Below, piece after piece: positions 5,699 to 12,431 of a stretch of 40,066 nt of DNA; positions within the stretch are counted from its first letter, which is position 1, and every line of letters starts with the position of its first letter. Location of the stretch: the NCBI GenBank assembly GCA_902770835.1, contig CACXUM010000024.1, positions 1 to 40,066 on the forward strand, given 5' to 3'. The translations under genes were made by a program, and so were the position numbers. The notes under the pieces were generated by a model, which saw nothing but the letters and a program-made list of their open reading frames with translations, made no database searches and was not told the origin of the DNA. The DNA comes from an uncultured Bacteroidia bacterium. Lineage in GTDB: Bacteria > Bacteroidota > Bacteroidia > Bacteroidales > F082.

Positions 5699-6907
5699 TC
5701 AGTGTAACTTTGCCAATGCAGCTTTGATGCGCTTCACGGCCTCGATGAGTTTGTCCTCGCTCGTGGCATACGACAGGCGGATACAGTCGTCGTTGCCGAA
5801 AGCGTTGCCGGCCACGCAGGCCACATGGGCATTGTAGAGCAGCCACATGCAGAGGTCGTCGCTGCCCTTGATGGTGGTCTCGCCGTCGGTCTTGCCGTAG
5901 AACGACTTCATTTCAGGGAACACATAGAACGCACCGGCGGGAGTGTTGCACTTCACGCCCGGAATCTCGTTCAGCAACTTCACGAAAGTGTCACGGCGGT
6001 GGCGGAAGGCCTTCAGCATTTCTTGGATTTCCGTTGAGTTCTCGGGGCTGAGTTCCATGGCCTTGGCTGCGGCGGCTTGCGCGATGGTGCAAATGCCGGA
6101 GGTGATTTGGCCTTGGATCTTGTTGGTGGCTTTCACGATGGCTTGGGGTGCGGCGATGTAGCCGATGCGCCAACCTGTCATGGCATAGCCCTTGGCCACG
6201 CCGTTGACGAGGACGAGGCGGTCTTTCAGGAAATCGAACTGGCCCATGCTCTCGTGCTTCTGCTCGTATTGGATGAACTCATAAATCTCGTCGGAGATGA
6301 TGATGATTTGGGGATATTTCTTCAAGACTTCGGCGATGGCGGTCAGTTCGGCCTTGGTGAACACGCTGCCGCTGGGGTTGCAAGGCGTGTTGATCATGAA
6401 CACTTTGGTCTTGGGCGTGATGGCCTTTTCGAGTTGCTCGGCGGTGATTTTGAATTCGTGTGCGATGTCGCTCTTGACGATGACGGGCACGCCGCCAGCC
6501 AATTTTACCATTTCGGGGTAGGAGACCCAGAACGGGGCGGGGATGATGACCTCGTCGCCGTCGTTGACGATGGCCAAAAGTGCGTTGTTGATGGCCTGCT
6601 TGGCACCGTTGGAAACGAGGATGTCGGTTTCCTTGTAGTCGAGGCCGTTATCGCGTTTCAGTTTGTTGGCGATGGCCTTGCGCAGCGCGGGCGTGCCGGG
6701 CACGGGCGGGTAGTGCGTGTCGTTGTTGTTGATGGCGTCCACACCGGCTTGCTTGGCCGATTCGGGCGTGTTGAAGTCGGGCTCGCCGATGCTCAGGCTG
6801 ATGACGTCGATGCCTTGGGCTTTCAGTTCACGGCTCTTGTTGGTCATGGCTAAAGTTGCCGATTCAGCCATGTTCAAAACTCTGTTGGAAAGGATGATTT
6901 CACTCAT
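5699..6907 (-). CDS. Class I aminotransferase (aspartate aminotransferase-like)
   Basis: A 402-residue PLP-dependent fold-type I enzyme, probably aspartate:2-oxoglutarate aminotransferase of the AspB subgroup (Igamma). The PLP lysine is K239 in NGVAKGYAMTGWRIGY. N177 (NTPCNPSG), D206 and Y209 (SDEIYE) hold the cofactor. The substrate-binding arginine is in the C-terminal IRLSYA. The N-terminal motif SLSIGEPDFNTP is also typical. A TACCTTTG promoter element lies 45 nt upstream on the minus strand. Family members may also use other amino acids or prephenate, so the exact substrate is not certain. Confidence 0.9.
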   Translation of the reverse strand: MSEIILSNRVLNMAESATLAMTNKSRELKAQGIDVISLSIGEPDFNTPESAKQAGVDAINNNDTHYPPVPGTPALRKAIANKLKRDNGLDYKETDILVSNGAKQAINNALLAIVNDGDEVIIPAPFWVSYPEMVKLAGGVPVIVKSDIAHEFKITAEQLEKAITPKTKVFMINTPCNPSGSVFTKAELTAIAEVLKKYPQIIIISDEIYEFIQYEQKHESMGQFDFLKDRLVLVNGVAKGYAMTGWRIGYIAAPQAIVKATNKIQGQITSGICTIAQAAAAKAMELSPENSTEIQEMLKAFRHRRDTFVKLLNEIPGVKCNTPAGAFYVFPEMKSFYGKTDGETTIKGSDDLCMWLLYNAHVACVAGNAFGNDDCIRLSYATSEDKLIEAVKRIKAALAKLH

Positions 6908-6952
6908 GATTTATGTTTAAATGTTTAATCGTTGTTTGTTGAATTGAATGGG

Positions 6953-6960
6953 CAAAGGTA
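6953..6960 (-). promoter_or_regulatory. Bacteroidota -7 promoter element for the aminotransferase
   Basis: On the minus strand the sequence is TACCTTTG, matching TAnnTTTG, about 45 nt before the ATG at 6907. A -33 box at the expected distance is not obvious. Confidence 0.5.
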
Positions 6961-7034
6961 GGCCTTTTTTTGCTTCAAAAGCCAGGCTTCTCGCTTTTTT
7001 TTGTCGTTTGTTCGTTTCGTATGTCGATTTTTTC

Positions 7035-7042
7035 TATTTTTG
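7035..7042 (+). promoter_or_regulatory. Bacteroidota -7 promoter element for the DUF1566-like gene
   Basis: TATTTTTG matches TAnnTTTG and sits 61 nt before the ATG at 7104. A TTTG box at 7007-7010 is 24 nt upstream, slightly longer than the usual 19-21 nt spacing. Confidence 0.45.
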
Positions 7043-7103
7043 TCGCCTGATTGAAACAGATTTGGTTCAATATTTGATGTGCCAAAGGGAAAAAATTGAA
7101 GTT

Positions 7104-7736
7104 ATGCGTAAAATAGCAAGACATTTGATGACGGCGCTCCTGATTATGGTTGCAGCGCCATTTGTGAAGGCTCAAGTTCACGTGGGCGACATTCTTTGCG
7201 AAGGCAATGTCGTTGTCAGCCCCAGTAGTTTTGCGGTTTCAGGACATACCCCCATCGGCGTGGTGTTCCATGTGGATGGCTCGCGGCAGCATGGCTGGGC
7301 TGTGGGCTTGAATGACTTGGGCAAGTACCAATGGGGACCCAATAGTGTTGACACGCCGTTGCGCAACCGTATGAACAAACTGCAAGCCAAGAATGACCTT
7401 GATGGCTATAACAACACCAAAACCATTTTGGAAGGTGGATACGACATACCGTTCCCTGCTTTTGATTTCCTTGACTTCGAAAACGGTTGGTATCTTCCAG
7501 CCTTGGGTCAGTTGAAGTACCTCTATGCCAACCTTGACAAGGTGAATGAAAGCCTCTCTGCGGTGGATGGCACGCCCTTCTCAACTGAAGAAGATTGGGA
7601 GTTTTGGTCGTCGACAGAATACTCCATCTGCAACGCTTGGAGCATGGATTCTTCCGGCAAGTTTTACCACAAAGACGAAAGTTACAACGGCAACAAGGAC
7701 GACCGGAAAATCATTCGCGGAGTGAGGAATTTCTGA
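7104..7736 (+). CDS. Secreted DUF1566-like (C-type-lectin-like fold) protein
   Basis: A 210-residue protein with a clean signal peptide (MRKIARHLMTALLIMVAAPFVKA, cleavage near residue 23). The start at 7104 was chosen over upstream in-frame codons because it begins the signal peptide and follows the promoter element. The mature part has GWYLPALGQLKYLYANLDKV and EDWEFWSSTEYS, which are hallmarks of the DUF1566/Fib_succ_major-like domain found in many exported Bacteroidales proteins. It is likely located in the periplasm or on the surface; the ligand is unknown. It ends at a strong intrinsic terminator and is therefore probably a single-gene unit. Confidence 0.7.
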   Translation: MRKIARHLMTALLIMVAAPFVKAQVHVGDILCEGNVVVSPSSFAVSGHTPIGVVFHVDGSRQHGWAVGLNDLGKYQWGPNSVDTPLRNRMNKLQAKNDLDGYNNTKTILEGGYDIPFPAFDFLDFENGWYLPALGQLKYLYANLDKVNESLSAVDGTPFSTEEDWEFWSSTEYSICNAWSMDSSGKFYHKDESYNGNKDDRKIIRGVRNF

Positions 7737-7753
7737 GTCCGAACCATCGACAG

Positions 7754-7793
7754 AAATGCCTCTGCATAACTTTTGCAGGGGCATTTGTTTTTT
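7754..7793 (+). terminator. Rho-independent terminator after the DUF1566-like gene
   Basis: The 13-nt arms 7754-7766 and 7774-7786 pair with one G-T wobble (AAATGCCTCTGCA with TGCAGGGGCATTT), with a 7-nt loop and a following T-run. It lies 17 nt after the stop codon. Confidence 0.85.
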
Positions 7794-7847
7794 GTGGGCA
7801 AATTGCAGGGAAATTGTGAGGCCTGATGGAAAATGCCGATTTATTTG

Positions 7848-7855
7848 TAACTTTG
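7848..7855 (+). promoter_or_regulatory. Bacteroidota -7 promoter element before the broken small gene
   Basis: TAACTTTG matches TAnnTTTG and lies 24 nt before the ATG at 7880, suggesting that the original gene began there. Confidence 0.45.
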
Positions 7856-7879
7856 CAGACTTTTAACAGTTAGTGTATT

Positions 7880-8202
7880 ATGACAGCGGATGAATTGAGA
7901 GAGAGGTGCTGAAAGAGGATGCCGTGATTGACTTTGTCAGTGATGACAACGCGGGCGATTTCAAGACCATCATTTGGAGGGATACTGATTTGGAGTTTTT
8001 GGAGGAAGGTTCGGAGAAAACCGAAGAAAGCACCCAGAAAATGGTCAATAATGAAGATGAAAAGTTGGTAGAAATGCCAGAAAACTTGGTAGAAAATCCA
8101 AGAACATTGGTAGAAAACCAAGAAACCTTTGTAGAAAATATTGAAAAGTTGGTAGAAGGAATGTTGGTTGGAAAATCGCGGCAGCGTGTGTTGATTCGAT
8201 AA
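7880..8202 (+). pseudogene. Small gene of unknown function, probably frameshifted near its start
   Basis: The ATG at 7880, at a normal distance from a promoter element, opens a frame that stops after ten codons (MTADELRERC). A second frame, offset by one missing base, continues from GTG 7906 for 98 residues. Joining the two would give MTADELRERVLKEDAVIDF, a plausible continuous protein start, so a single-base deletion is inferred. The rest is acidic and polar and contains five copies of a seven-residue repeat based on LVEN. No family was recognised. The alternative is that GTG 7906 is the true start of an intact 98-residue protein. It precedes the ATPase/TOPRIM pair and marks the start of the accessory segment. 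Confidence 0.45.
8065..8160 (+). repeat. 21-bp in-frame tandem repeat
   Basis: Copies of TTGGTAGAA (one as TTTGTAGAA) start at 8065, 8086, 8107, 8128 and 8149, an exact 21-bp period. In the coding frame they read LVEMPEN, LVENPRT, LVENQET, FVENIEK and LVEGMLV, a heptad-length unit with divergent second halves. Confidence 0.85.
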
Positions 8203-8239
8203 AATGCTTTGCATAATAACAAATAATTGAAATAATCTG

Positions 8240-8247
8240 TATTTTTG
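8240..8247 (+). promoter_or_regulatory. Bacteroidota -7 promoter element for the ATPase/TOPRIM pair
   Basis: TATTTTTG matches TAnnTTTG, 23 nt before the ATG at 8271. It would drive both genes of the pair, which are only 8 nt apart. Confidence 0.5.
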
Positions 8248-8270
8248 CAAATTGTAAACACCAATATAAT

Positions 8271-9389
8271 ATGAAATTCAAGTCAATAAGCGCAAGAAAC
8301 AAACGGACGGGATGGAACGTGGAGAACATGCAGTTCAATCCTATGCTTACACTTTTGGTGGGCGCATCGGGTGTGGGCAAAACCAAAATTCTAAATATCA
8401 TAAGGATGCTGACTCGTGTTGCAAGAGGCGAATCCTTTAATGGATTTGAGTGGGAGATTGAGTTTGAACAGAATGGAAGAAACTATGTGTGGGAAGGCGA
8501 GTTTGCAATTATCGAAGTAAACCAGCCTCTGATGAGAGATATGGAAGTTGGTAATGATGAGGCACCTATTGTGAGAGAAATGGTTTTAGATAATGGGGAA
8601 GAAATGATAATGCGCTCATCTGACGGAATTCGCTATAAAGGCAATGATTTGGTTAAATTGGATAATGCCAAAAGCGTAGTTGAACTTTTAAAGGAGGAGT
8701 CTTCCATAAAACCCATTTATGACGGTTTTAAACAGTGTTATGCTTTGGAAGTGGCAGACAGTTCTCTCCGGTTTGCTCCTATGGCTTCGATGTATAAGAA
8801 TATGACATTTGATGCAATGCAGATAAAACAAATGAGCAACATCTCTCCATTGGAGAAATTGTATTTTCTTCGTGTGAACAAGTTGAAAGAGTTTGATTTA
8901 ATCTGTCAGGCGTTCCAAAGTATTTTCCCTAACGTGGAACAAATTGATGTGTTGCTATCCAAAGCATTTGATGATTTTTTCACCGTAGTTGCAAGGATTA
9001 AGGAGAAGGGTGTTGAGCCTTGGATTGAACACTTTGATATTTCTTCTGGAATGTTTCGTACATTGCTGCAAATCACAGCAATGGTCATGGCTAATGACGG
9101 CGATGTGATTATGATTGACGAGTTTGAGAACGGTTTGGGCGTGAACTGTATCAACGAATTGGCCGACCTTATCATGGAACCCGAAGCCAATATCCAAGTA
9201 GTGATGACCAGCCACCATCCTTATATCATCAATGCCATACCTGTCAAAGATTGGAAGATTCTTACGCGCAATGGAAGCGATGTGCAAGTTCACACCGCCG
9301 ATGAACTTCATATCGGTGAACATTCGAAGCATGAGGCGTTTATGCAGTTGCTTCAAACACGTGAATACAAGACTGGAACCAGAAACTAA
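8271..9389 (+). CDS. AAA/ABC-type ATPase of the OLD/RloA/AriA kind (candidate defence ATPase)
   Basis: A 372-residue ATPase of the RecF/SMC/OLD-like group (AAA_15/AAA_21 families). Walker A is GASGVGKT at 31-38, a signature-like SSGMFR is at 258-263, Walker B is VIMIDEFEN at 279-287, and the switch histidine is in TSHHP at 313-317. The middle section has no recognised domain, and there is no C-terminal TOPRIM fused on. Eight nt after its stop begins a TOPRIM-like gene, the layout of two-gene systems such as RloA-RloB or PARIS (AriA-AriB). Those ATPases sense phage and control a nuclease partner. Function here is inferred from the arrangement. Base composition is more AT-rich than in the flanking housekeeping genes, consistent with transfer. 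Confidence 0.8.
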   Translation: MKFKSISARNKRTGWNVENMQFNPMLTLLVGASGVGKTKILNIIRMLTRVARGESFNGFEWEIEFEQNGRNYVWEGEFAIIEVNQPLMRDMEVGNDEAPIVREMVLDNGEEMIMRSSDGIRYKGNDLVKLDNAKSVVELLKEESSIKPIYDGFKQCYALEVADSSLRFAPMASMYKNMTFDAMQIKQMSNISPLEKLYFLRVNKLKEFDLICQAFQSIFPNVEQIDVLLSKAFDDFFTVVARIKEKGVEPWIEHFDISSGMFRTLLQITAMVMANDGDVIMIDEFENGLGVNCINELADLIMEPEANIQVVMTSHHPYIINAIPVKDWKILTRNGSDVQVHTADELHIGEHSKHEAFMQLLQTREYKTGTRN

Positions 9390-9397
9390 CAGGCAAG

Positions 9398-10090
9398 ATG
9401 AACTTCTATATTGTAGTTGAAGGCGATCAGACTGAAATGTCAGTTTATCCAGCATGGCTTTCCATCCTGGCACCGACCTATACGCGCATTGAAAACGCTT
9501 GGAATGTAGGCGAGAACAACTACTACATTTTCAGCGGCGGTGGTATCCCATCCATCTATACGCATGTAAAAAACGCCGTTTTGGACATCAATTCCATCAA
9601 TAGCAAAGGCGAGTCGCGATACGATTATCTGTTGGTCTGCCTGGATACGGAAGAGGAGACCCGGGAATATATTCTTGGGCAGATAAATAAGGAGTTACAA
9701 TCGAACAATGTTGCCTTGCAAGATGCCGACTTGATAGTGTTTGAACATAAAGTTTGCATGGAAACATGGTTTTTGGGCAATCAGAATGTATTCAAAGACA
9801 ATCCGCAAAATGCTGAATATTTGGAATATATCAAGTATTACAATGTGGGTCATGACAATCCCGAAGAGATGGGAAACATGGATGAAAACAAATTTGCAAC
9901 CACGGCAAAGTTTCATCTTCGCTATCTGAAAAGGATGTTAGAGGAAAGGAACATGACCTATTCGAAAAACAATACAATTGTCGTGCAGAAGCAAGCCTAT
10001 TTACAACAATTGATTAGTCGCTATAAAATTACCGGGCACATTGCTACCTTCGGCAGTTGGTATGACTTCGTGAAAGCCCATTTCAGATGA
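9398..10090 (+). CDS. TOPRIM-like (RloB/DUF4276/DUF4435-type) partner of the ATPase
   Basis: A 230-residue protein starting MNFYIVVEGDQTE. The motif VEGDQTE (7-13) with its glutamate, and LVCLDTEEET (79-88) with the following acidic group, fit the two metal-binding motifs of a TOPRIM fold. CMETWFLGN (120-128) matches the E-x-W-hydrophobic motif found in RloB and DUF4276 proteins. There is no signal peptide or membrane segment. It is the probable effector of the upstream ATPase, cutting DNA or RNA when released or activated, as in other ATPase-TOPRIM defence pairs. That role is inferred. The exact subfamily cannot be fixed without a profile search. Confidence 0.72.
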   Translation: MNFYIVVEGDQTEMSVYPAWLSILAPTYTRIENAWNVGENNYYIFSGGGIPSIYTHVKNAVLDINSINSKGESRYDYLLVCLDTEEETREYILGQINKELQSNNVALQDADLIVFEHKVCMETWFLGNQNVFKDNPQNAEYLEYIKYYNVGHDNPEEMGNMDENKFATTAKFHLRYLKRMLEERNMTYSKNNTIVVQKQAYLQQLISRYKITGHIATFGSWYDFVKAHFR

Positions 10091-10122
10091 TAAGTAGATG
10101 AGCAAATTTAGTTTACATAATA

Positions 10123-10198
10123 GACTGCGAGACTCCGAGACTGCGGGACTGCGAGTCGAACAAATACCCGAAGTCCCGTGTCCCGAAGTCCCGAAGTC
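10123..10198. repeat. 8-mer tandem repeats in inverted arrangement
   Basis: Four units of GACTGCGA type start at 10123, 10131, 10139 and 10147. They are followed, after a short spacer, by three units of CCCGAAGT type (10168-10198) and one shortened unit CCCGTGT. The second set is roughly the reverse complement of the first (ACTTCGGG compared with GACTGCGGG), so the region could form a GC-rich imperfect hairpin in otherwise AT-rich sequence. It lies 32 nt after the TOPRIM stop and might act as a terminator or as a mobile repeat scar. Confidence 0.75.
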
Positions 10199-10267
10199 AA
10201 AGAATAATGCAGTTTAATTTTGAACAGTTACTTATTATACGCATTTGTTATAATATAGTTGTTATCA

Positions 10268-10363
10268 ATGAAAGAATATACACTGATAGATTTTGTTCCC
10301 CGTGAACAAATAGAAAAATATAGAGACTGGGAAATCTCTTTTGATTGGGAAGTTGTCCGATAA
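10268..10363 (+). CDS. Mini-ORF of 31 codons, unknown (possible gene remnant)
   Basis: The frame encodes MKEYTLIDFVPREQIEKYRD followed by WEISFDWEVVR, a protein-like composition rich in charged and aromatic residues. No ribosome-binding site stands out and no family was recognised. It may be a small protein, the 5' remnant of a decayed gene continuing into the MYEKMSGKDE frame, or chance. Confidence 0.25.
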   Translation: MKEYTLIDFVPREQIEKYRDWEISFDWEVVR

Positions 10364-10433
10364 AATGTACGAAAAAATGTCAGGAAAAGATGAATAAGGA
10401 AAACAGGAGAAACTTGAAATAGTGAATTTGTTG

Positions 10434-10441
10434 TATTTTTG
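10434..10441 (+). promoter_or_regulatory. Bacteroidota -7 promoter element for the GIY-YIG gene
   Basis: TATTTTTG matches TAnnTTTG, 32 nt before the ATG at 10474. Confidence 0.5.
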
Positions 10442-10473
10442 CACCATTAGGTTTTAAGTTGCTATAAATAAAT

Positions 10474-11745
10474 ATGAGAACGCATAAGTTAAAAGAATTC
10501 ATTTTTGAGTCGGATTTAGTTAAACTGAATAGAAACAATGCCGATTTTAGCGCATATAATGCTGTGATGATTATCAATACAAATATAGCAGATTCATTAC
10601 TTCACGCAAAATACTTGTCTGTGTATGATGGATTTATTGTTGAACTACATAAAGGCGATGTCATAGGTATCCTTTCGCTTTCTAAAAAAACAATTTCTGC
10701 TCCAATAACTTCTGCTCCTAAAAACTGTCAAATAACAGATACGCGTGATTATCAGAGATTTCAATATCAAATTCAGTTAATCACACCTCAAGATAATTAT
10801 TATTTGTTTCCAAAGATAGACAACCTTCTGTTTAATCAAAAGTTCTTTTACGATGATGACATTACCTTATGCAAATCATTCGAGTCAAACCAAGAAATAT
10901 CAGAATGCCTCCAAAAGGAGGTGGAACATTTCGTAGAAAGCAAGTTCAGTTATCTTGTTACAGACGATGTGTTCACTGGTGAAAAACGAATAGTATGGAA
11001 AAACTGGTATGAATTGTGTTTTGATGGTGCGGAAACTTACCCTTATATTATTCTACAGAATTCCAAAGAACAATTCGTAATGAAGTACCACAAAAAGGAC
11101 TTCTCTGCACATAAATTTGATAGAGGTGACAGACTTCTTTTTTTGTTTGAAGACAATCAATGTATAAATGTTCAATTGAGAGCGAAAGAATCTAATACCG
11201 ATAAAATAAACTATAAACAAATTTCGTTTTCATTGCTTCCTCAAGACATGGTTTCGTTCTCATCGAAATCGTTGATAAGAATTCGTTTTGAGTTCCTTAA
11301 TGGCGATGAAAGCCTTGATTTGAAACCAAAAAATGAGACGGTTACTCTTTCCTTTAAACTATATTTCCAAAAATACATTAAAGCATTAGGTGAATGTGGG
11401 GTGAGTATCGAAAGATTTTCTTCTTTAAACGAACATGTAATACATCATACAAACGAATCTAATAAAGAATCGAAAGACTCTTCTTGTTTTGTGTATCTAA
11501 TGAAAGATGAATCAAATAGTTTTTATAAAATAGGCATTTCAAACAAACCTGAATATAGAGAAAGAACTTTACAGAGTGAAAAACCGACAATAGTGCTTTT
11601 GTGTGCTAAAAAATTCCCTTCAAGAGTTATTGCCGATTCCATTGAGTCAGCACTGCATAAAGCATACGGATATAAAAGGTTGAGAGGAGAATGGTTTGAG
11701 TTGGACAACAAAGATGTAACCGAAATTGTTGCAACTCTTTCATAA
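10474..11745 (+). CDS. GIY-YIG nuclease-domain protein (T5orf172/MUG113-like) with unknown N-terminal region
   Basis: A 423-residue protein. Residues 336-423 form a GIY-YIG-type domain: FVYLMKD and FYKIGIS correspond to the GIY and YIG strands, the catalytic arginine is likely in EYRERTL, and the glutamate is in SIESALHKAY. The ending RLRGEWFEL is typical of the T5orf172/MUG113 branch found in phage and mobile-element proteins. Residues 1-330 are not recognised. They look globular, mainly beta-strand-like, without membrane segments, and could recognise DNA or another target. Codon use is distinctly AT-rich compared with the neighbours, a sign of horizontal transfer. It has its own promoter element and stands alone between the defence-like pair and the lipid A genes. 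A stand-alone nuclease in DNA defence or processing is an inference. Confidence 0.7.
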   Translation: MRTHKLKEFIFESDLVKLNRNNADFSAYNAVMIINTNIADSLLHAKYLSVYDGFIVELHKGDVIGILSLSKKTISAPITSAPKNCQITDTRDYQRFQYQIQLITPQDNYYLFPKIDNLLFNQKFFYDDDITLCKSFESNQEISECLQKEVEHFVESKFSYLVTDDVFTGEKRIVWKNWYELCFDGAETYPYIILQNSKEQFVMKYHKKDFSAHKFDRGDRLLFLFEDNQCINVQLRAKESNTDKINYKQISFSLLPQDMVSFSSKSLIRIRFEFLNGDESLDLKPKNETVTLSFKLYFQKYIKALGECGVSIERFSSLNEHVIHHTNESNKESKDSSCFVYLMKDESNSFYKIGISNKPEYRERTLQSEKPTIVLLCAKKFPSRVIADSIESALHKAYGYKRLRGEWFELDNKDVTEIVATLS

Positions 11746-11793
11746 TATGCTAATCGTTATCATTATCTTATTTATCATAATAAACTGAAAAAA

Positions 11794-12312
11794 ATGAACA
11801 CTTGGATTATCTATTCACTGATGGGTGCGGGGCTGCTGCTGATGGTCGCCGCGATGATACTTTTGTCCCGACTGATTCGGATGAAAGACGCCGAACTCCG
11901 CAACGGTAGCAAAATGGAACTGAAGGTGCAAGCCTTGAAGATTATTATGCCACTGAAGGTGCAGGCCTACGAGCGGTTTTTGCTCTTTCTTGAAAGGGCT
12001 CAATTGCCCCAATTAGTGAAGCGCGTCTATGCGCCGGGAATGGAAAAAGGTGCGTTTCATCTGCAACTTTTGCAGAATGTGCGCGAGGAGTTTGAACACA
12101 ATCTTGCCCAGCAGTTGTATGTTTCCAATTCCACTTGGAATGCTGTGGTGAACGCCAAGGAAGAACTTGTCAACCAAATCAATACGACTTTCGAGCAACT
12201 GAAGGATGAGGAGGATGTGTCCATCTTGGCGCAGAGCCTCGTGGCCTTGCCCAATCCGATGGTGGAGCAGGCCGTGGCTGTCCTGAAACGCGATTTTGAA
12301 CGCCTGCTTTAA
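11794..12312 (+). CDS. Conserved Bacteroidota membrane-anchored protein (DUF7935-like)
   Basis: A 172-residue protein with one N-terminal membrane segment (IIYSLMGAGLLLMVAAMILL, residues 5-24) and a helical cytoplasmic part. The stretch LKIIMPLKVQAYERFLLFLE and the helix with EFEHNLAQQLYVSNSTWNAV recall a small uncharacterised family annotated DUF7935 in Bacteroidota. Function is unknown. It precedes lpxD by 119 nt, with an inverted repeat between them, so it may or may not be cotranscribed with the lipid A genes. The family name is from memory and is less certain than the existence of the gene. Confidence 0.7.
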   Translation: MNTWIIYSLMGAGLLLMVAAMILLSRLIRMKDAELRNGSKMELKVQALKIIMPLKVQAYERFLLFLERAQLPQLVKRVYAPGMEKGAFHLQLLQNVREEFEHNLAQQLYVSNSTWNAVVNAKEELVNQINTTFEQLKDEEDVSILAQSLVALPNPMVEQAVAVLKRDFERLL

Positions 12313-12327
12313 CCTGTTGGTCGGCGT

Positions 12328-12368
12328 TTCGACAGGCTCAACGACCTTAGGCCCCTGAGCCTGTCGAA
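12328..12368. repeat. Perfect 13-bp inverted repeat (hairpin)
   Basis: TTCGACAGGCTCA at 12328-12340 and its exact reverse complement TGAGCCTGTCGAA at 12356-12368 flank a 15-nt loop. The stem is GC-rich and lies just after the stop codon of the DUF7935-like gene. No T-run follows, so it may be a dispersed REP-like element more than a classical terminator. Confidence 0.8.
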
Positions 12369-12431
12369 GGGCCGTCCCCGAAACAATAAATGTCTTTATT
12401 TTCCGTTTTACGGTATCAAACACACATTGTA

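What the first reader, a model, noticed from the sequence alone, without database searches (positions are those of the whole stretch)
8271..10090. Two-gene ATPase + TOPRIM-like module, a candidate defence system
An OLD/RloA/AriA-type ATPase with complete Walker A, signature-like and Walker B motifs is followed after 8 nt by a 230-residue protein. That protein has VEGDQTE, LVCLDTEEET and CMETWFLGN motifs of a TOPRIM/RloB-like nuclease. The pair lies in an AT-richer accessory segment next to a broken gene, repeats and a GIY-YIG protein. It is organised like RloA-RloB or PARIS. Both proteins are short (372 and 230 residues), so it may be a compact or new subtype.
Basis: partly seen in the sequence, partly recalled or inferred. 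Interest (0 to 1): 0.75.

Follow-up and report, generated by a model that had tools for sequence, protein, structure and literature searches.

The report
Mobile ATPase–nuclease pair, likely anti-phage
A rumen gut bacterium carries a small mobile pair of genes, an ATP-burning sensor-like protein and a nuclease-like partner, that resembles known bacterial suicide defences against viruses and has close relatives inside restriction-enzyme operons.

Summary
In detail: gene A (8271-9389, 372 aa, OLD/PtuA/AriA-type ABC ATPase) is followed 8 nt later by gene B (9398-10090, 230 aa). B keeps a TOPRIM-type metal site, E8 and D83-x-[DE]85, in 27 of 27 aligned rows, window included. Its family profile aligns with RloB/AbiLii-type proteins (probability 94.8%; 20 column shuffles at most 0.49%), but a fold search gave no significant hit. 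A lies directly upstream of B in 29 of 30 fetched loci; the exception is cut by a contig end. In the tree made here A forms its own group, apart from ATPases that partner RloB/AbiLii and DUF4276 proteins. The pair behaves as a roughly 1.87 kb cassette, in a site that is empty in four relatives. Four close relatives lie between hsdS and hsdR of type I restriction operons. Best reading: an AbiL/PARIS-like abortive-infection pair, perhaps a restriction guard; a distinct lineage of a known kind. Untested: nuclease activity, phage defence. Its size is not unusual, and the GIY-YIG gene is not part of it.

The parts
8240..8247 (+). likely promoter -7 box (TATTTTTG, fits TAnnTTTG; this Bacteroidota consensus is recalled, no call tests it)
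   Evidence: TAnnTTTG lies shortly before gene A in 7 of 7 upstream regions printed; DNA similarity to L006-L010 starts at about 8220
8271..9389 (+). gene A: ABC-type ATPase of the OLD/PtuA/AriA kind, 372 aa
8361..8384 (+). Walker A of A (GASGVGKT, residues 31-38)
8511..9020 (+). faster-changing middle of A (residues 81-250), candidate trigger-sensing part (inference)
   Evidence: 20-residue bins of 19-70% identity here, 61-89% over 1-80, 79-100% over 261-372
9042..9053 (+). ABC signature-like SSGM of A
9105..9128 (+). Walker B of A (VIMIDEFE)
9207..9224 (+). H-loop-like TSHHPY of A
9398..10090 (+). gene B: TOPRIM/RloB-like protein, 230 aa, likely nuclease effector
9419..9421 (+). E8 of B (TOPRIM glutamate, VEG)
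   Evidence: 27 of 27 rows
9644..9652 (+). D83-x-E85 of B (TOPRIM DxD/DxE)
   Evidence: 27 of 27 rows
9755..9769 (+). CMETW of B (residues 120-124), aligned with the FE.W motif of RloB/AbiLii-type proteins
   Evidence: C120 and E122 27 of 27 rows; alignment
10092..10232 (.). 141-nt insertion directly after B, absent in L005; partial copies elsewhere in the genome; not part of the system

Best explanation
The pair is a self-contained, horizontally moving abortive-infection cassette of the AbiL/PARIS kind. Gene A is an ABC-type ATPase that probably oligomerises, holds B inactive, and senses an infection signal through its variable middle part. Gene B is a metal-dependent TOPRIM nuclease that, once released or switched on, cuts a nucleic acid the cell needs (tRNA or other RNA is the favoured guess, from AriB) and stops growth before phage is made. 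Shown here: two conserved genes, the motifs, the strict pairing, a separate ATPase group, the cassette, and its occurrence in restriction operons. Inferred: oligomerisation, inhibition of B by A, the trigger, the substrate, and defence.
For: A carries the ABC/OLD ATPase motifs. Its family profile finds AriA chains first among solved structures (E 1.5e-6), and its model matches retron PtuA complexes best (Foldseek E 3.4e-13, but TM-score only 0.46 over the query). All 25 A rows hit the PADLOC AriA and AbiLi models at E<=1e-5, though also mad3, HEC-01A, PDC-M07A and PDC-M25A, so this places it only in the general kind. B keeps E8, D83, [DE]85 and E122 in 27 of 27 rows, with predicted order beta 3-7, helix 12-24, beta 41-46, helix 53-69, beta 77-83, helix 89-102, beta 111-117. 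B aligns by profile with RloB/AbiLii-type proteins, EG, D.D and FE.W in register. A is directly upstream of B in 29 of 30 loci; the exception is cut by a contig end, and in three more A is cut by one. The pair occurs in few genomes and on plasmids of Cyanobacteriota, Bacteroidota and Pseudomonadota. Restriction genes lie beside or near it in 6 of 29 distinct loci. Literature, passages read only: an AbiLii of Fusobacterium is toxic in E. coli (PMC3985639); two AAA plus TOPRIM pairs are reported as neutraliser and toxin (PMC10440598); AriA holds and releases AriB, a tRNA-cutting TOPRIM nuclease (PMC12409363, PMC12707154).
Against: Foldseek found no significant structure for the B model (best E 0.015, lumazine synthase; mean pLDDT 77.5). 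Window B is below the Pfam cut-off of its only hit (DUF4276 E 0.022). In PMC3985639 the lactococcal AbiLii was not toxic in E. coli, and AbiLi of Fusobacterium did not neutralise its AbiLii, so 'A inhibits B' may fail. An AAA-neutralised pair with another toxin gave no phage protection in an E. coli screen (PMC10440598). In 22 of 29 loci the queries used found no restriction gene, and in L139 only a weak methylase match. I found no wet data for this family.
Confidence: 0.8

Rival explanations
1. Guard of restriction: the pair watches over restriction-modification and fires when a phage blocks it (for example by an Ocr-like anti-restriction protein), as PrrC and PARIS do. This is a narrower form of the best explanation.
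For: The pair lies between hsdS and hsdR in L006, L007, L008 and L010, directly before a type III mod/res pair in L066, and near a XamI type II system on plasmid L025. HsdR starts 4, 4 and 12 nt after the stop codon of B in L006, L007 and L010. Review passages describe PrrC inside a type I locus and PARIS sensing Ocr (PMC12707154).
Against: The window copy and L009 are not in restriction operons. The hsd interval also holds other defence-type genes (GmrSD- and HEPN-type in L135, an AbiJ-type ATPase in L007, an AIPR gene upstream of the pairless hsdR of L144), so it may be just a defence slot; of three pairless operons looked at, L145 has hsdS and hsdM directly upstream and L143 one unnamed gene and hsdM. 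The window genome has no match to this HsdR at E<=1e-100 (3 of 60 relatives do).
Confidence: 0.3
2. A toxin-antitoxin or addiction pair that keeps plasmids and islands in the cell, with little role against phage.
For: It occurs on small plasmids, near other toxin-antitoxin genes in L027 and L028; AAA plus TOPRIM pairs behave as toxin and neutraliser.
Against: Chromosomal copies inside hsd operons, rarity and turnover fit defence better; toxin-antitoxin and defence are not exclusive.
Confidence: 0.15
3. A housekeeping DNA-repair pair (SMC/Rad50-like ATPase with a TOPRIM partner).
For: A's model also matches Rad50 and SMC heads.
Against: Presence in 4 of 60 relatives, 5 of 395 phylum genomes and 6 of 393 order genomes (own genome counted in each), and in a site empty in four relatives, is not housekeeping.
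Confidence: 0.03

Closest known systems
AbiL (AbiLi ATPase + AbiLii RloB/TOPRIM), Lactococcus abortive infection
   Same: Gene order, ATPase type, RloB-like TOPRIM partner; all 25 A rows hit an AbiLi model at E<=1e-5 and 16 of 27 B rows hit AbiLii at E<=0.1.
   Different: Window B scores E 0.015 on AbiLii. The same model finds 26 of 148 genomes, with two other loci of the window's own genome among them, but not this B. The ATPase group is separate.
RloA/RloB (genes linked to type I restriction operons)
   Same: Type I operon location of four close relatives; RloB profile similarity.
   Different: Window B itself has no RloB hit at E<=1. The Campylobacter rlo genes that gave the name are recalled and were not fetched; PMC10440598 says RloB occurs in type I operons (passage).
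PARIS (AriA/AriB)
   Same: Two-gene ATPase + TOPRIM logic; AriA is the best PADLOC hit of A (1.1e-19) and the best solved match of the A profile.
   Different: No AriB model among the hits of B or its family; A is 372 aa, the solved AriA chains 464. No certain AriA was in my tree.
DUF4276-type ATPase pairs
   Same: Same layout and size; weak DUF4276 hits in 20 of 27 B rows at E<=0.1.
   Different: Profile alignment covers only 10 columns, probability 10.4%; separate ATPase group.
PADLOC candidates PDC-M38 and HEC-01
   Same: Weak two-sided match to PDC-M38: M38A 2.1e-9, M38B 5.9e-5 for the window pair; HEC-01A 3.5e-19 for A.
   Different: M38 scores are 35 and 20 bits over part of the models; model PDLC04618 (M38B) rings in none of 148 phylum genomes nor in the 14 controls, so that search says little. 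Window B has no HEC-01B hit, other members have.

Membership tests
AbiL | AAA ATPase of the AbiLi type as first gene | tested here: met
   AbiLi model 2.5e-17 for A; 25 of 25 rows at E<=1e-5. The same rows hit several other ATPase models, so this is not exclusive.
AbiL | second gene recognised by the AbiLii model | tested here: not met
   E 0.015 for window B; not reported in its own genome at E<=0.001 although two other loci are. Some family members do better (best 1.3e-7).
AbiL / RloA-RloB | ATPase falls with ATPases that partner RloB/AbiLii proteins | tested here: not met
   21 window-type rows lie on one side of a branch with 100/100 support, apart from 13 RloB/AbiLii partners. The program warns that long branches meet there.
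RloA-RloB | location in a type I restriction operon | tested here: inconclusive
   Met for four close relatives (L006, L007, L008, L010); not met for the window copy or L009.
RloB (PF13707) | score over the Pfam cut-off | tested here: not met
   Window B has no RloB hit at E<=1; 12 of 27 rows hit at E<=0.1, best 2.4e-5.
PARIS | AriB-type TOPRIM partner | tested here: not met
   No AriB model among hits of B at E<=1 or of the 27 rows at E<=0.1.
TOPRIM nuclease | conserved E and DxD/DxE metal residues | tested here: met
   E8, D83 and [DE]85 in 27 of 27 rows.
TOPRIM nuclease | TOPRIM fold by structure comparison | tested here: inconclusive
   Strand and helix order fits; Foldseek best E 0.015, to unrelated folds.
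TOPRIM nuclease | metal-dependent cleavage of nucleic acid | not testable with these tools
   needs protein
DUF4276 (PF14103) | score over the Pfam cut-off | tested here: not met
   15.5 bits against 30.2 for window B.
OLD-type ABC ATPase | Walker A, signature, Walker B, H-loop | tested here: met
   Present and invariant or nearly so in 25 rows; AAA_21 66.8 bits over cut-off 27.
anti-phage defence system | protection of a host against phage | not testable with these tools
   needs a plaque assay

The most novel reading that the evidence does not exclude
A separate lineage of two-gene ATPase-TOPRIM immunity, not modelled as such in the libraries searched, that evolved as a plug-in guard of type I restriction operons. 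The ATPase's fast-changing middle reads out phage anti-restriction proteins, and copies such as the window's later left the hsd operon, still trailing a vestige of the hsdR start, to become free-standing.
Probability: 0.22. Interest if true: 0.65.

Novelty: new variant of a known kind. Interest (0 to 1): 0.45.

Why it matters
If right, a family of ATPase-TOPRIM immune pairs that current models name only by weak, conflicting hits gets a defined membership, a cassette boundary and a testable trigger. The natural series of closely related pairs inside and outside hsd operons would let one ask directly whether such pairs sense failure of restriction.

Tried and rejected
GIY-YIG gene 10474 as a third component: rejected; of the 30 loci compared it accompanies the pair only in the window's own locus and L005. 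tRNA-Ser at 6941-7031 as an integration site: doubtful; ARAGORN finds no tRNA-Ser in any of eight relatives' loci. Terminal inverted repeats around the cassette (8213-8235 and 10232-10254, 74%): one of 22 such pairs, not pursued. Sigma-70 and terminator scans: no more than in shuffles. Rfam: none over 6800-12400. Compactness as a sign of novelty: rejected. AriA set for the tree: model PDLC02979 rang in 148 of 148 genomes and all 14 controls, so it is unspecific; of its 15 loci I used two (rows ARI), neither followed by an evident AriB, so no PARIS clade was tested. Viral contigs: five pattern matches, no relative by tblastn.

Rows left out of the ATPase tree: of the AbiLii-model loci L076 and L077; of the weak HEC-01B/DUF4276 loci L084, L085, L100, L101 and L105; of the AriA-model loci L109-L120 and L122; of the window family the near copies L005, L007, L008, L009 and L028 and the cut copies L016, L021 and L030.

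Literature: I cannot say that the family is not in print. Searches listed no title that describes it; others returned nothing, and long lists were seen only in part. The library holds open-licence papers only. Passages were read from six papers (PMC10568477, PMC12409363, PMC3985639, PMC10440598, PMC12707154, the last two on PMC12707154 and PMC10440598), that is five different papers, none in full; the rest were seen as listings.

Full report
What is there. The window lies in genome G000, contig C24; its nearest named relatives are uncultured Bacteroidales, several from rumen samples. Gene A spans 8271-9389 and gene B 9398-10090, same strand, 8 nt apart. A is an ABC-type ATPase: AAA_21 66.8 bits against a cut-off of 27. 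Walker A, SSGM, Walker B and TSHHPY are invariant or nearly so in 25 aligned rows, window included. The predicted model (pLDDT 85) matches retron PtuA complexes best (Foldseek E 3.4e-13, TM-score 0.46 over the query) and, lower in the list, Rad50, SMC and Septu PtuA. A profile of the family finds AriA chains first among solved structures (E 1.5e-6).

B is a TOPRIM/RloB-like protein by sequence. E8, D83, C120 and E122 are identical in 27 of 27 aligned rows (window included; two rows, L002 and L009, are the same contig) and residue 85 is always D or E. The model's order of strands and helices fits TOPRIM, with E8 after the first strand (3-7) and D83 at the end of strand 77-83. A profile of the 27 rows aligns with a profile of 13 RloB/AbiLii-type proteins over 100 columns with probability 94.8% and E 5e-8, the EG, D.D and FE.W motifs in register. 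Twenty column-shuffled versions reach at most 0.49%, and four ATPase profiles at most 0.79%. Against it: Foldseek gave nothing significant (best E 0.015, lumazine synthase); window B stays under the Pfam cut-off of its one hit, and none of the 27 rows has an NCBIfam hit at E<=0.01.

The two genes belong together. In 29 of 30 fetched loci A lies directly upstream of B; the exception, L015, begins at a contig end, and in L016, L021 and L030 A itself is cut by one. A few of the 30 loci are the same contig under two names (L002 and L009 by length and identity). B starts at or near the stop of A in many loci. A Proteus plasmid (L026) has two copies, one with a split A.

The pair moves. It is found in 4 of 60 relatives, 5 of 395 genomes of the phylum and 6 of 393 of the order (own genome counted in each), in 7 of 72,556 plasmid records and 1 of 50,697 phage records, among them plasmids of Nostoc, Planktothrix, Bernardetia, Acinetobacter, Proteus and a Methylovorus plasmid with Zot-domain and integrase annotations. 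In the window it lies between an aminotransferase-like gene and the gene before an lpxD-like gene (names from my reading of the translations, no family call). In four relatives (L061, L062, L063, L068) the same two neighbours are only about 130-200 nt apart; in G018 (L059) the site holds other ORFs and in G016 (L060) only a relative of the Lcl-like ORF. Apart from L005, which is similar through the whole region, DNA similarity to L006-L010 runs in pieces of 74-86% within about 8220-10097, that is a promoter-like box plus A plus B, the middle of A not aligning.

Restriction context. In L006, L007, L008 and L010 (B 78-82% identical to the window's) the pair sits between HsdS and HsdR of type I restriction operons, in L006, L007 and L010 with other genes between HsdS and the pair; in L008 hsdR is broken. 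HsdR starts 4, 4 and 12 nt after the stop of B in L006, L007 and L010. L066 has a type III methylase and restriction gene directly after the pair, and L025 a XamI type II system nearby. That is 6 of 29 distinct loci; L139 has a weak methylase match and 22 have none. The queries came from the positive loci, so other restriction types could be missed, and several loci are short. In L006 and L007 the pair's DNA is 85.6% identical over 1912 nt, and A and B are 87% and 94% identical, while the adjacent HsdR proteins are only 55% identical. I read this as exchange of the pair between operons. The interval also holds other defence-type genes: an AbiJ-type ATPase in L007, GmrSD-, HEPN- and Schlafen/AlbA-type genes in L010/L135, an AIPR gene upstream of a pairless hsdR in L144; two other pairless operons, L143 and L145, show no named cargo. 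It may therefore be a general cargo slot, which weakens the guard reading.

A possible footprint. Two of three pairless hsdR genes (L143, L144; not L145) begin with ATGCG.AACTTCGACTAC. After the stop of B, L005, L009 and L015, which showed no hsd genes, carry a short look-alike of the stretch that starts hsdR in L007: 9, 8 and 7 of 11 positions by my own count; the more distant L011-L014 do not. This suggests, without a statistical test, that these copies descend from an hsd-embedded one. In the window a 141-nt insertion separates B from this stretch; parts of it recur elsewhere in the genome.

Where change is fast. Among six pairs (window, L006-L010), A's residues 81-250 fall in 20-residue bins of 19-70% identity, residues 1-80 of 61-89%, 261-372 of 79-100%, and B of 66-93%. 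The ratio of changes at codon positions 1+2 to position 3 is 0.60 for A 81-250, 0.38 for 1-80, 0.14 for 251-372 and 0.27 for B. Position 3 differs at about half of sites and insert regions of such ATPases often vary (recalled), so the sensor idea is inference.

Place among known systems. In a tree of 55 ATPases the 21 window-type rows form one group with 100/100 support, apart from 13 partners of RloB/AbiLii, 12 of DUF4276 and nine others; the program warns of long branches, and no certain AriA is in it. PADLOC's AbiLii model finds 26 of 148 genomes drawn from the phylum, with two other loci in the window's own genome, but not this B. DUF4276 pairs share layout and size, but B aligns with them over 10 columns only. 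No AriB model matches. So the pair looks built like AbiL, RloAB and PARIS, and by the tests run it is not a member of AbiL, RloB, DUF4276 or PARIS as modelled.

Mechanism. Passages read say that AriA holds and releases AriB, which cuts tRNA as a two-metal TOPRIM nuclease (PMC12409363; PMC12707154); that a Fusobacterium AbiLii is toxic though its AbiLi did not neutralise it, and that the lactococcal AbiLii was not toxic in E. coli (PMC3985639); and that two AAA plus TOPRIM pairs act as neutraliser and toxin (PMC10440598). By analogy I take A as holder and sensor and B as effector. Nothing here tests that.

Noticed in passing
L026 1082-2949 and 6688-8554: A 10 kb Proteus terrae plasmid carries two copies of the pair, the second with A split into two ORFs.
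   Followed up: partly
L029 7698-9441: A 9.8 kb Methylovorus plasmid annotated with Zot-domain, capsid and integrase genes carries the pair directly after the integrase, as if a filamentous-phage-like element bears it as cargo.
   Followed up: no
G000:C59, C11, C45 (L123-L125): The window's own genome holds further ATPase/TOPRIM-type loci: two AbiLii-model hits (C45, C11) and a weak DUF4276 hit beside an AriA-model ATPase (C59).
   Followed up: partly
L135 7252-14508 (same contig as L010): One hsd operon carries a run of defence-type genes between hsdS and hsdR: GmrSD-, HEPN- and Schlafen/AlbA-type genes and the pair.
   Followed up: partly
window 10092-10232: 141-nt element inserted right after B, absent in L005, with partial copies on C11, C60 and C13 of the genome.
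   Followed up: partly
window 8058-8157: 21-nt in-frame repeats (LVEN-like) inside the remnant ORF 7906-8202.
   Followed up: no
window 6941-7031: ARAGORN calls a tRNA-Ser overlapping the Lcl-like ORF; none is found in eight relatives' loci, so it is probably false.
   Followed up: partly
L006, L007, L008: A and B do not share one history: L006-L008 A 95% but B 78%, L006-L007 A 87% but B 94%, suggesting recombination between the two genes.
   Followed up: no
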